Positions 18,970-22,468 of a stretch of DNA of 64,000 nucleotides are shown here, in pieces. The stretch spans positions 62,001 through 126,000 of the forward strand of contig NZ_JACHEB010000010.1 of NCBI RefSeq assembly GCF_014201335.1, written 5' to 3'. A model generated the notes under the pieces. The model did not search any database. It had not been told where the DNA came from and was given only the letters and a program-made list of their open reading frames with translations. The stretch's first letter is position 1, and every line of letters starts with the position of its first letter. Both the position numbers and the translations under genes were made by a program. The DNA is from Tunturiibacter gelidiferens (GTDB taxonomy: Bacteria; Acidobacteriota; Terriglobia; Terriglobales; Acidobacteriaceae).

Positions 18970-19505
18970 CTACAACTATCAATGTCTATTCTTCACAAGA
19001 AATGAATCACTTTCCTGCAAATAGTCCGGGCGGGATTGCCAGGTCATGAAGCGATGCTTCCCAGTTGTTACCAGACTGTACCGGATAATTTCACGGCTCT
19101 AGACCTGTAGTTTTTACGGTTAGTCCGAAGGTGGTGTATGGCACAATCTCTCCTTTACCAACCAGGAGACCTCTTCAATGGGCATGGCTCAATCCCGCGC
19201 CGCCGAGTTTGTACATAGGAGGGCTATGACCGTTCTTCGAACTCATCAGTGGGAGACGGCAAGCAGATGGACGGCAGTCAATCGTCAATTAGGACCCAAG
19301 CCTTCTAGGACGTTTGCGGTGCTGCTTGCTATGGATTGCGCTGCTCGGCACAGCTCGTATTCCTAGTTGGAATAACGCTCACCCTGATTTTCATTGGACG
19401 TGTAGCCACACTTGTCACGATCATTGGCTCAATTCGAGTGTTGAGCGGCAGACCTCAGAAGTCTTGATGATGACGCATTTCGACGCTTGGCTTTGGAGTG
19501 GCCCA

Positions 19506-19763
19506 ATGGCACAGACGCATTACCTTCTCGATGCACACGAAGCTGCACAAATGCTCCGCATGGATAGGCGGACGCTAGTTCGATGGGCACGTCTCGGCCA
19601 AGTCCCGGCTCATCCTATGGGAGAGGGCGAACGGAAGCTCTGGCGCTTCGTAGAACATGAGCTTCTACAGTGGGTTGAAGCCCGTACAATCAGCTCGGAA
19701 CGGCGACCGCCCGGGAGTACCATCGAGACAGTCATCAGCGCTCATGCGAGGAGAACAGCATGA
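19506..19763 (+). CDS. Excisionase/MerR-like DNA-binding protein
   Basis: The 85-residue protein has the HTH_17 excisionase fold: YLLDAHEAAQMLRMDRRTLVRWARLGQVPAHPMGEG, then a wing ending in LWRFVEHELLQWVEA. It would bend DNA at an attachment site to steer the integrase toward excision. The start at 19506 has GGAG upstream. Its stop overlaps the integrase start (ATGA at 19760-19763), so the two are translationally coupled. Confidence 0.85.
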   Translation: MAQTHYLLDAHEAAQMLRMDRRTLVRWARLGQVPAHPMGEGERKLWRFVEHELLQWVEARTISSERRPPGSTIETVISAHARRTA

Positions 19764-21018
19764 GCCGTTTTCAACAAGGAAGTCTCTTGAAACAGAAGCG
19801 TAAAAGCGGTCCGGACGTATGGGTGTTTCGCTGGTATGACGAGACCAGCGGTAAGCGCACATGCAAGAAACGCAACCTCGGCACAGTGAAGGATCTTCCT
19901 TCACGCCGGGATGCGGAGCAGGCCGTGGCCGACTTTCGCGCAAACATCAACGTCGAGGTCAGAGTTCCCTTTACGGTCTCTGAACTCATCGCCCACTATC
20001 GCAAACACGAGTTAACCGAGAATAAGAAAGCATTCGCCACGATTGCATCAACCTCGATCTATCTGACCAACCACATCGCTCCGAAGTGGGGTGAGAAGTG
20101 GTTGTCAGATGTTCGAACCGTGGAAGTCGAAGAGTGGCTACACTCTCTCCAATACGCTCCGGCCACAAGGAGCAAAATTCGGAACATCATGTCTGCGGTC
20201 TTCAACCATGCCATCCGGTATGAATGGATGCTTCGCAACCCCATCACCAAGGTTCGGGCTTCGTCAATGCGGCTTCGGGAGCCAGATGTACTGACGCCCG
20301 CCGAATTCGCAGCCTTGGTGGACGAACTGCCACTTCGCGTAAAGCGATGGTGATTTTGGCGGGGAGTACGGGTTTGCGACGGTCGGAACTTGTTGCCCTT
20401 ACATGGCGAGATGTCGACACGCTCCTGATGCAGGTCAACGTCCTTCGCTCGTGCGTTCGGGGCCGCTTCGGGGATACCAAGACCGAAGCGAGCCCAAAAC
20501 CTGTTCCATTGCACACGTCAGTCGTCGAGTGTCTCGACGCCTGGAGGAGGGAGTCGCTGTACAACGGCGACGACGATTTTCTCTTTCCGTCAGTTCGAAA
20601 TGAGGGAAGAACGCCGGTGACTCCCGACATGATTCTGAAAAAGATCATTCGCCCCGCACTCGTCCGGGCGAAGATTACAGGGAAGAGAATCGGATGGCAC
20701 AGCTTCCGTCACTCTCTGGCGACGAACCTGAGAGCGGCTGGTGCGGATCTGAAGACAGCCCAGGAACTCGTGCGTCACGCGAACTCGCGGATCACCCTCG
20801 ACATCTATACACGGGCGATCTCAGCGACCAAACGTGAGGCCAACAATAAAGTCATGGAGATGGTGATTGAGGCCGGCAAGACCAGGCTTTCAGCACCCTC
20901 GCCCGCACCCTCGCGACGGGAAGCCCACTCATTAGAAGGCAGCAAAAAAGGTGCCGTAAACTCTCAGCACCCTTCAGCACCCTCGCGGGCTACAACTAAT
21001 CTTGTCACTGTGCCATAA
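19760..21018 (+). pseudogene. Tyrosine recombinase (integrase), frameshifted at an AAA run
   Basis: The N-terminal part, with an arm-binding region and a SAM-like core-binding domain, runs to a TGA at 20353. The catalytic part continues in another frame: Arg in GSTGLRRSELVAL, HSFRH with His and Arg, the second His in VRHANSRITLD and the nucleophile Tyr in IYTRA. Adding one base at the AAA at 20341-20343 restores a full enzyme of about 420 residues (LPLRVKAMVILAGSTG). The C-terminal tail is Ser/Pro-rich. The 3' end runs into a 9-bp hairpin (21013-21021 with 21035-21043) and a tRNA-Asp fragment, the usual place for an integrase beside its attachment site. As read here it would be inactive. Confidence 0.88.
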
Positions 21019-21040: not shown

Positions 21041-21086
21041 TGGCGGGGGAAGCCGGGGCTCGAACCCGCGACCTCTGCCGTGACAG
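21041..21086 (-). other. Attachment-site remnant: tRNA-Asp 3' half
   Basis: Read on the minus strand, the segment has a CTGTCAC anticodon loop (GUC, Asp), the variable stretch AGGTC, a T-arm GCGGG-TTCGAGC-CCCGG and a 3' end GCCA. The T-stem is one base out of register and the 5' half of the tRNA is missing, so it is not a working gene. It is the copy of the target tRNA left by integration, right after the integrase. Confidence 0.65.
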
Positions 21087-21177
21087 TGAACTGGAAATAC
21101 GTAACTTATTGGAAACAGGCGTAGCGGATGGCTCCTTTAGCGCCCTGAGACACCCAAAGTAACCCTTATTGCACCCT

Positions 21178-21250
21178 TATCGAACCCACGACCTCTTTCC
21201 TGTAGACCTCTGCCCACGACCTCTGCCTTAAGGCAGAGGTCGTGGGTTCG
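21178..21250. repeat. Tandem tRNA-like fragments with a 34-bp perfect palindrome
   Basis: The block CGAACCCACGACCTCT occurs at 21181-21196 and a related CCCACGACCTCTGCC at 21213. The latter is followed at once by its exact inverse, giving a 34-bp perfect palindrome at 21213-21246 whose right end reads GTGGGTTCG. Every unit resembles a tRNA variable loop plus T-arm. They look like repeated attachment sites from serial integrations. Confidence 0.65.
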
Positions 21251-21262
21251 TTAGCGATTTTT

Positions 21263-21360
21263 TGCGGAGATTTGCCCAAGTTATCTCCGCATGTCCCGCG
21301 GAGACAATCTTTCCTAATGCGGAGATTAGGCCTATAATCTCCGCAAGGGGTGCGGAGATT
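21263..21360. promoter_or_regulatory. Operator array and promoter of the fic gene
   Basis: Six GCGGAGA-type half-sites lie in 98 bases. TGCGGAGAT (21263-21271) faces ATCTCCGCA (21283-21291). TGCGGAGATTA (21318-21328) faces TAATCTCCGCA (21335-21345). Single copies lie at about 21298 and at 21351, the latter inside the first codons of fic. A TATAAT (21333-21338) sits within the second pair, so a bound repressor would cover the -10 box. The start codon lies only about 11 bases after it, which suggests a leaderless or nearly leaderless mRNA. Confidence 0.65.
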
Positions 21361-22468
21361 GAGCAGGTACATCCATGAGCTCAAGGCCTGTCCCAACTTC
21401 GATTGGGATCGCAAACGCCTGATTGAACCACTAGCTACCGTGCGCCATGAACAGGGGCGATTACTGGGCCGGATGGAAAATCTCGGCTTTCGGCTTCAGC
21501 AGGAGGCCCTCTTGATGACCCTCACGGAAGACGTTCTCAAGAGCAGTGAGATCGAGGGCGAAAAGCTCAACGAAGAACTGGTTCGGTCCTCCATCGCAAG
21601 ACGACTGGGCATGGATATCGGCGGCCTCCAGACCGTCGATCGAAACGTCGAGGGTGTGGTCGAGATGATGCTCGATGCGACGCGCCAATATGACGAGCCC
21701 CTGACTGGGGAGCGGCTCTTTGGATGGCATGCCTCGCTCTTCCCAACCGGCCGGAGCGGAATGAAGAAGATCGCTGTCGGCAATTGGCGCAACGATGCTG
21801 AAGGTCCCATGCAAGTAGTCTCAGGTCCGGTAGGCCGGCAACATGTTCACTTCGAGGCGCCGGTCGCCAAGCTGCTGAATCACGAGATGCAGACCTTTCT
21901 CGACTGGTTCAACGAAGCCAACGAAAAAGACTGGGTCGTGAAAGCCTCCCTGGCCCATCTCTGGTTCGTAACAATTCATCCATTCGACGATGGCAATGGC
22001 CGCATCGCGCGCGCTATCGCAGATATGAGTCTTGCTCGGTCGGAACGAAGTTCACGGCGCTTCTACAGCATGTCGGCGCAGATCCAACAAGAACGACGCG
22101 CTTACTACGATCATCTTGAGCAGGCCCAGCGCGGCACGATGGACATCACGAATTGGATGGCATGGTTTCTCGACTGTCTGGGTCATGCCATTAACGGCGC
22201 GCAAACGACCCTCGCGACCGTACTTGTCAAAGCCCGCTTCTGTGAATCCATCGCCGCCGTTTCCCTCAATGAGCGCCAGAGGCTCGTCCTCAATCGCCTT
22301 CTGGACGGATTTGAGGGAAAACTCACGACGTCAAAGTGGGCGAAGCTGGCGAAGTGCTCACAGGATACGGCCACTCGCGACATCCTTGCCCTCGTCCACC
22401 AAGGTGTCCTGAAGCGCAATGCCGAGGGTGGTAGAAGCACGAGCTATTCAATTGCTCTCCAACCATAA
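21350..22468 (+). CDS. fic: Fic-domain AMP-transferase with N-terminal inhibitory motif and C-terminal winged helix
   Basis: The 372-residue protein has an N-terminal helical part with the inhibitory motif SSEIEGE (residues about 65-71) and the catalytic loop HPFDDGNGRIARA (about 210-222). Its C-terminal winged helix-turn-helix is LNERQRLVLNRLLDGFEG, then LTTSKWAKLAKCSQDTATRDI and a wing GRSTSYSI. Fic enzymes transfer AMP from ATP to Ser, Thr or Tyr of target proteins; the inhibitory helix here marks the class II, self-restrained type. The C-terminal domain could bind the palindromes in front of the gene, making it its own repressor. The start is a GTG inside the last half-site. It lies just beyond the tRNA-like attachment repeats, so it is likely cargo of an integrated element. 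Confidence 0.93.
   Translation: MRRLSRYIHELKACPNFDWDRKRLIEPLATVRHEQGRLLGRMENLGFRLQQEALLMTLTEDVLKSSEIEGEKLNEELVRSSIARRLGMDIGGLQTVDRNVEGVVEMMLDATRQYDEPLTGERLFGWHASLFPTGRSGMKKIAVGNWRNDAEGPMQVVSGPVGRQHVHFEAPVAKLLNHEMQTFLDWFNEANEKDWVVKASLAHLWFVTIHPFDDGNGRIARAIADMSLARSERSSRRFYSMSAQIQQERRAYYDHLEQAQRGTMDITNWMAWFLDCLGHAINGAQTTLATVLVKARFCESIAAVSLNERQRLVLNRLLDGFEGKLTTSKWAKLAKCSQDTATRDILALVHQGVLKRNAEGGRSTSYSIALQP

What the first reader, a model, noticed from the sequence alone, without database searches (positions are those of the whole stretch)
21263..22468. Fic protein that may repress itself through an array of GCGGAGAT palindromes
Six half-sites in under 100 bases, two of them arranged as long palindromes, precede fic. 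One palindrome covers a perfect TATAAT and the last half-site is inside the coding start. The protein ends in a winged helix. Together this suggests a single-gene autoregulatory module in which the AMP-transferase is also the DNA-binding switch, with a nearly leaderless mRNA.
Basis: partly seen in the sequence, partly recalled or inferred. Interest (0 to 1): 0.72.

Follow-up and report, generated by a model that had tools for sequence, protein, structure and literature searches.

The report
Fic enzyme with its own operator array
This gene makes an AMP-transferring enzyme that ends in a DNA-binding domain, and in front of it lies an ordered set of short repeats, also found in front of related genes in many bacteria, that is best read as the switch by which the enzyme turns down its own gene.

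Summary
Five exact GCGGAGAT half-sites and one with a mismatch lie in 96 bp (21264-21359) before a DUF4172-Fic-winged-helix gene; one palindrome covers TATAAT. Half-sites recur within one base pair at six offsets around the -10. More distant DUF4172 Fics carry the same 28-30 bp unit with other half-sites. Half-site type follows recognition-helix residue 339 (Asp with TGC, 42 of 42; others with TGA, 39 of 39; 18 of 99 loci not callable), though few independent switches support this. I conclude that the protein represses its own promoter (0.8). CccR is a proven Fic autorepressor and CbFic2, the closest solved structure, is switched by DNA of unspecified sequence, so the principle is known. New, as far as nine searches of an open library show, are the six-half-site operator, its spread and a candidate recognition code. 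22 of 80 palindromes stand without such a fic. Binding is untested.

The parts
21264..21271 (+). half-site 1 (>), left arm of upstream palindrome (21263-21291 with outer T/A); offset -73
   Evidence: family offset -74/-73
21283..21290 (-). half-site 2 (<), right arm of upstream palindrome; offset -54
   Evidence: family offset -55/-54
21298..21305 (+). half-site 3 (>), GCGGAGAC, one mismatch; offset -39
   Evidence: family offset -40/-39
21310..21315 (+). candidate -35 (TTTCCT), weak, 17 bp before the -10
   Evidence: not found by the consensus scan
21319..21326 (+). half-site 4 (>), in the -35/-10 spacer; offset -18, one base less than the family's -19
   Evidence: family offset -19
21333..21338 (+). 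-10 element TATAAT, overlapping half-site 5
   Evidence: YATAAT-like at this place in relatives
21337..21344 (-). half-site 5 (<), anchor, offset 0
21352..21359 (+). half-site 6 (>), at the translation start; offset +15
   Evidence: family offset +15
21350..22468 (+). DUF4172-Fic-winged-helix gene; start GTG 21350 or TTG 21359
21542..21559 (+). inhibitory motif SSEIEG (residues 65-70), class II Fic
21977..22012 (+). Fic motif HPFDDGNGRIAR (residues 210-221)
22271..22453 (+). C-terminal winged helix (residues 308-368); recognition helix 338-350 at 22361-22399, Asp339 at 22364-22366

Best explanation
The gene is a one-gene autorepressed Fic module. The protein dimerises (inferred from CbFic2 and CccR) and each winged helix reads one TGCGGAGAWT half-site. 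A dimer would fill a 28-30 bp convergent palindrome, whose half-site centres are about 19-20 bp apart (my estimate, roughly 65-68 A). The second palindrome lies on the -10 element and the third half-site of that triad covers the translation start, so occupancy excludes RNA polymerase. The upstream triad probably adds cooperative binding. When the protein falls or is titrated, the promoter reopens. By analogy with CbFic2, the DNA-bound dimer may also be the de-AMPylating state, which would couple gene control to enzyme control. Shown here: the array, its near-fixed geometry, its conservation with fic, and the match between half-site type and recognition helix. Inferred: binding, repression, dimer-per-palindrome, cooperativity, enzyme coupling.
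For: 51 of 80 listed genome-wide palindromes are -3 to 87 bp upstream of a fic homologue (some of these fics broken or cut by the locus end), 22 of the 51 at 3-5 bp and 15 at 57-60 bp. In 297 genomes of the phylum not chosen for the array, 8 have the looser palindrome and in 5 of these (the window's own included) it lies at fic; the reversed control pattern occurs in one genome. 47 of 52 protein-found fic genes have an upstream inverted repeat against 236 of 1593 control segments. Of 59 fics of at least 44% identity found by protein search (window included), 55 could be anchored, and half-sites recur at > -19 in 42, > +15 in 43, < -55/-54 in 24, > -40/-39 in 27, > -74/-73 in 21. Half-site type follows residue 339 in 81 of 81 callable loci of 99; with at most one mismatch in the palindrome, in 59 of 59. 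One genome (G054) holds two GCGGAGAT-type fics and a distant fic with its own TGATTGATAG pair. Apart from the fic promoter, the 29-bp form matches the window's genome at up to 2 mismatches only once, inside a reading frame. Direct precedent: CccR binds palindromes in its own promoter and represses it (PMC9755527).
Against: No binding or expression data for this protein. The residue/half-site match rests on few evolutionary switches: 3 on the best tree, 1 independent pair on supported branches, too few to reach significance; one of the three (L231) rests on a weak two-mismatch site. The half-site caller imposed outer TG...CA and a length of 27-31, so only the third base and beyond were free. 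22 of 80 palindromes have no DUF4172 fic beside them, and 5 of 52 fics lack the repeat. CccR's footprint is a different layout (two half-sites, N26). CbFic2 bound random DNA with nanomolar affinity (PMC10628234), so specificity in this branch is not proven. The -35 here is poor.
Confidence: 0.8

Rival explanations
1. The array is the operator of another regulator encoded elsewhere, and the Fic winged helix serves only to hold the enzyme on DNA.
For: CbFic2 binds random DNA (PMC10628234); 22 of 80 palindromes lie without a DUF4172 fic, and 14 of those 22 genomes show no fic at E 1e-20 (L039's genome was not among those searched, L038's was).
Against: The array travels with fic across phyla and plasmids; 13 plasmid loci that I picked show no shared neighbouring gene. 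The half-site changes with the Fic subfamily, even within one genome, and half-site type follows the Fic recognition helix.
Confidence: 0.08
2. The protein activates rather than represses its promoter, or does both depending on which triad is filled.
For: The upstream triad lies upstream of the -35, a possible activating place, and the -35 here is poor.
Against: The most regular part of the array is over the spacer, -10 and start (offsets -19, 0, +15), where occupancy should block polymerase; the upstream triad is less regular (21-27 of 55); CccR is a repressor.
Confidence: 0.08
3. The repeats act in RNA (hairpin, attenuator) or are a mobile-element end or dispersed repeat.
For: Palindromes can fold; the window's locus is beside an integrase and tRNA-like repeats, and 4 of 13 plasmid loci have a recombinase, integrase or transposase gene in the stretch shown.
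Against: Most of the array is upstream of the place where transcription would start from the -10; an unpaired third half-site recurs at a fixed offset; the palindrome is not dispersed in the genome; 9 of 13 plasmid loci show no recombinase in the stretch shown.
Confidence: 0.03

Closest known systems
CccR (YPK_0951) of Yersinia pseudotuberculosis (PMC9755527; passages and section 10 part 1 seen)
   Same: Fic domain plus C-terminal HTH; binds palindromes near -35/-10 of its own promoter; autorepressor; dimerisation needed.
   Different: Reported operator is two half-sites AGATAATCAT-N26-ATGATAATCT, not a six-half-site array; a T6SS effector beside effector genes. A secretion context was not looked for here.
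CbFic2 (CBU_0822), PDB 8cil (PMC10628234; abstract, outline and passages seen)
   Same: Same DUF4172-Fic-wHTH architecture, closest solved structure (E 9.1e-100; TM-scores 0.83-0.88), class II motifs; DNA binding through the wHTH drives dimerisation and the switch to de-AMPylation.
   Different: Only random DNA was used, by the authors' own account; reported to modify host histones. Its gene was not fetched here.
SoFic / PADLOC SoFic, 3eqx
   Same: Fic fold with C-terminal winged helix; the PADLOC SoFic model matches (E 2.5e-43).
   Different: 15% identity in the structural match to 3eqx; NCBIfam SoFic equivalog 44.4 bits against a cut-off of 550. E. coli Sofic has a small antitoxin gene downstream (PMC12249575, passages); I did not search for one here.
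Autoregulated type II toxin-antitoxin operons (recalled)
   Same: Operator palindromes over the promoter, bound by the module's own product.
   Different: No second gene is evident in the layout: catalytic and DNA-binding domains are one chain, and the inhibitory motif is internal.

Membership tests
Class II Fic AMP-transferase | Fic motif HPFx[DE]GNGRxxR | tested here: met
   HPFDDGNGRIAR, residues 210-221; H210, P211, F212, D214-R218 and R221 invariant in 35 sequences
Class II Fic AMP-transferase | inhibitory motif [ST]xxxE[GN] N-terminal to the Fic core | tested here: met
   SSEIEG, residues 65-70; I68 E69 G70 invariant
Class II Fic AMP-transferase | AMP-transferase activity | not testable with these tools
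   needs an assay
DUF4172-Fic-wHTH (CbFic2 type) | DUF4172 + Fic + C-terminal wHTH, full-length homology | tested here: met
   PF13776 E 2.4e-30, PF02661 E 1.4e-13; 8cil over residues 4-368; model and Foldseek
SoFic defence protein (NCBIfam equivalog NF046030) | score above curated cut-off | tested here: not met
   44.4 bits against 550
SoFic defence protein (PADLOC) | match to PDLC03963 | tested here: inconclusive
   E 2.5e-43, no curated cut-off shown; defence not tested
CccR-type Fic autorepressor | palindromic half-sites near -35/-10 of its own gene | tested here: met
CccR-type Fic autorepressor | two half-sites with an inner gap of 26 bp | tested here: inconclusive
   by coordinates the divergent pair 21282-21291 / 21318-21327 has a 26-bp gap, but CccR's gap is 28 if its half-sites are started at TG, and the window has four other half-sites
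CccR-type Fic autorepressor | protein binds the site and represses | not testable with these tools
   needs EMSA and reporter

The most novel reading that the evidence does not exclude
DUF4172 Fic proteins form a large, phylum-crossing class of one-gene toxin-repressors whose operator specificity diversifies in concert with the recognition helix, like phage immunity groups. A resident copy would silence an incoming copy of the same specificity but not one of another, and the operator-bound dimer would also be the enzymatically 'off' state, so that one piece of DNA controls both synthesis and activity.
Probability: 0.2. Interest if true: 0.78.

Novelty: new variant of a known kind. Interest (0 to 1): 0.55.

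Why it matters
CbFic2 showed that DNA flips a DUF4172 Fic between AMPylation and de-AMPylation, but only random DNA was used. The recurrent 28-30 bp unit in a near-fixed six-half-site layout gives a ready ligand for that question in environmental relatives, and predicts which protein should bind which operator. If the residue 339/342 correlation holds, the family becomes a natural set of orthogonal repressors and a case of a toxin-like enzyme that carries its own transcriptional brake without an antitoxin gene.

Tried and rejected
RNA-structure and dispersed-repeat readings were set aside because most of the array is upstream of any transcript from the -10 and the exact palindrome is confined to fic in this genome but for one copy; no RNA folding was run. 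That copy (C12) overlaps the end of a reading frame, and the 2-mismatch match on C4 lies inside a 155-aa mechanical reading frame: both treated as chance. Two 3-mismatch matches (C6 and a second on C10) were not examined; one search tested only the 29-bp spacing. SoFic equivalog: not met. Phage records: 17 matches, all under 60% identity. The phylogeny-corrected test of residue 339 was too weak to count as proof. In one search, 18 of 99 loci were not callable: 13 had no palindrome with at most two mismatches (10 of them with Asp339), 2 lacked the C-terminal residues, 3 gave TGG or TGT. L200 (VHRDTARRDI) has, by eye, a shorter TGCAAATA-type palindrome. The literature search for GCGGAGAT with Fic matched 935 papers; the 15 listed looked like substring noise by title.

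Full report
What is there. The window holds a 372-codon gene (GTG 21350, or TTG 21359, to 22468) for a protein with DUF4172 (residues 7-88) and a Fic domain. Its Fic motif HPFDDGNGRIAR and inhibitory motif SSEIEG are intact. An AlphaFold2 model from 35 sequences (mean pLDDT 89.8) ends in helices 308-318, 327-334 and 338-350 and strands 354-356 and 366-368, a winged helix. The best PDB match by sequence and by fold is 8cil, CbFic2. Upstream lie six half-sites in 96 bp in the order > < > > < >, with TATAAT at 21333-21338 overlapping the fifth.

Is it more than chance? In the window's genome the exact palindrome occurs three times, twice here and once over the end of a reading frame. My rough estimate of chance matches for a whole scan is about six (uniform base composition; not a tool result). 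Of the 80, 51 have a fic homologue whose extrapolated start is -3 to 87 bp from the palindrome; 22 of the 51 lie at 3-5 bp and 15 at 57-60 bp, the places of the second and the first palindrome. The 51 include broken genes (L046, L091) and genes cut by the end of the locus (L036, L067). By phylum of the record title (many are metagenome bins): Pseudomonadota 32, Bacteroidota 6, Spirochaetota 3, Acidobacteriota, Planctomycetota and Thermodesulfobacteriota 2 each, Nitrospirota, Chloroflexota and Myxococcota 1 each, one unassigned. Two more (L042, L053) are cut just after the fic start, and five carry fic remnants (L038 by eye, L055, L066, L080, L084). The other 22 have no DUF4172 fic beside them; in two of these (L040, L111) a frame that matches only the Fic core of the family profile begins 137 and 261 bp away.

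The solo sites. On the matched strand, 12 of the 22 keep a third half-site at the usual spacing with at most two mismatches, 3 of them exact (no control run), and four more (L040, L060, L103, L111) show an exact one on the other side (by eye). This suggests scars of lost fic genes. One search covered 22 genomes, those of 21 solo loci (all but L039) and of L038: 8 of the 22 have a fic at E 1e-20, some broken, and 14 have none; L038's genome is one of the 8. I could not show that any solo site is a regulated target.

Samples not selected by the palindrome. (a) Of 199 related genomes, 41 have a match at E 1e-30. From 39 of their matches and 13 plasmid loci that I picked to span identity (of 60 listed, 428 records found), 52 upstream regions were tested: 47 have an inverted repeat (9-nt arms, at most one mismatch, spacer 6-15) against 236 of 1593 control segments from the same loci. 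(b) Of 297 genomes of the phylum, 8 have the looser palindrome and one has the reversed control. In 5 of the 8 it lies at fic (the window's own among them, which also holds the C12 copy), one (L191) looks like a relic with a third half-site, and two look like chance.

Geometry. Taking the half-site on the -10 as zero, half-sites recur at > -74/-73, < -55/-54, > -40/-39, > -19, < 0 and > +15 (62 of 68 loci anchored, pattern-selected ones included). In the protein-found set of at least 44% identity, 55 of 59 anchored: > -19 in 42, > +15 in 43, < -55/-54 in 24, > -40/-39 in 27, > -74/-73 in 21. The window has -73, -54, -39, -18, 0 and +15, so its inner palindrome is one base shorter than the rule; its 98% relative L006 has the rule's -19. 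At the -10 the commonest bases are T/C (27/23), A 51, T 44, A 50, A 39, T 55 of 55; at the first three -35 positions, 17 bp upstream, T 40, T 34, G 32 of 55. The window's own -35 is poor. The first in-frame start is at +14 in 23 of 55 and at +23 to +30 in 15 of 55. With a start of transcription about 7 nt after the -10 (rule of thumb, not tested), leaders would be about 5-20 nt: very short rather than strictly leaderless.

Other half-sites in other subfamilies. Fics of 30-46% identity carry arrays built of TGAGCGATAG, TGAGCCGAAT, TGATTTGAAT, TGAGGCATAA and others. One genome, G054, has two close copies of the window's locus and one distant fic with its own TGATTGATAG pair. Across 99 protein-found loci, Asp at residue 339 goes with TGC in 42 of 42 callable loci and other residues with TGA in 39 of 39; 18 were not callable. 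With at most one mismatch the counts are 27 of 27 and 32 of 32. On a tree of residues 1-300 each trait changes 3 times and the two agree in 82 of 82 rows, but only one independent pair lies on supported branches, so this is a lead, not proof. Among Asp339 loci, base 6 of the half-site is A in 78 of 89 half-sites when residue 342 is G, H, I, Q, S, T or Y and in 25 of 81 when it is L, N or V; half-sites of one locus are not independent and no tree correction was made.

Mechanism. I read the array as the protein's own operator. CccR does this with two half-sites (PMC9755527: passages; section 10 part 1), and its DNA-binding helices are reported 70.2 A apart, close to my estimate of 65-68 A between half-site centres of the unit. 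CbFic2 dimerises on DNA and then de-AMPylates; its authors used random DNA (PMC10628234: abstract, outline and passages). Repression by blocking the -10 and start is inferred, and coupling to enzyme state is more speculative.

Novelty. Nine full-text searches of the open library showed no account of this operator in what they listed; DUF4172 occurs in three papers. Subscription journals and preprints are not held there. The principle is known from CccR; the multi-half-site operator, its spread and the candidate code appear new.

Noticed in passing
19314-21018: An HTH_17 gene and a tyrosine integrase that reads in two overlapping frames (19760-20353 and 20224-21018), apparently interrupted, just upstream of fic.
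   Followed up: partly
21061-21253: Nested direct and inverted repeats of CGAACCC(A/G)CGACCTCT(GCC), tRNA-like to my eye, with a perfect 17-bp inverted repeat at 21213-21246; possibly attachment-site remnants. ARAGORN finds no tRNA in the window.
   Followed up: partly
L160, L161 (G054): A same-genus genome holds two copies of the integrase-end-plus-fic block, matching the window at 90.5% over 5.9 kb and 95.6% over 3.0 kb of DNA: probably a mobile block.
   Followed up: partly
L039, L040, L050, L059, L060, L065, L068, L071, L072, L073, L077, L079, L082, L086, L087, L089, L102, L103, L105, L109, L111, L114: Palindromes without a DUF4172 fic beside them, most with a third half-site: possible operator scars, or targets in trans.
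   Followed up: partly
L040, L111: A frame matching only the Fic core of the family profile begins 137 and 261 bp from a solo palindrome.
   Followed up: no
L200: A fic with an altered recognition helix (VHRDTARRDI) has, by eye, a different and shorter palindrome (TGCAAATA type) at its promoter.
   Followed up: no
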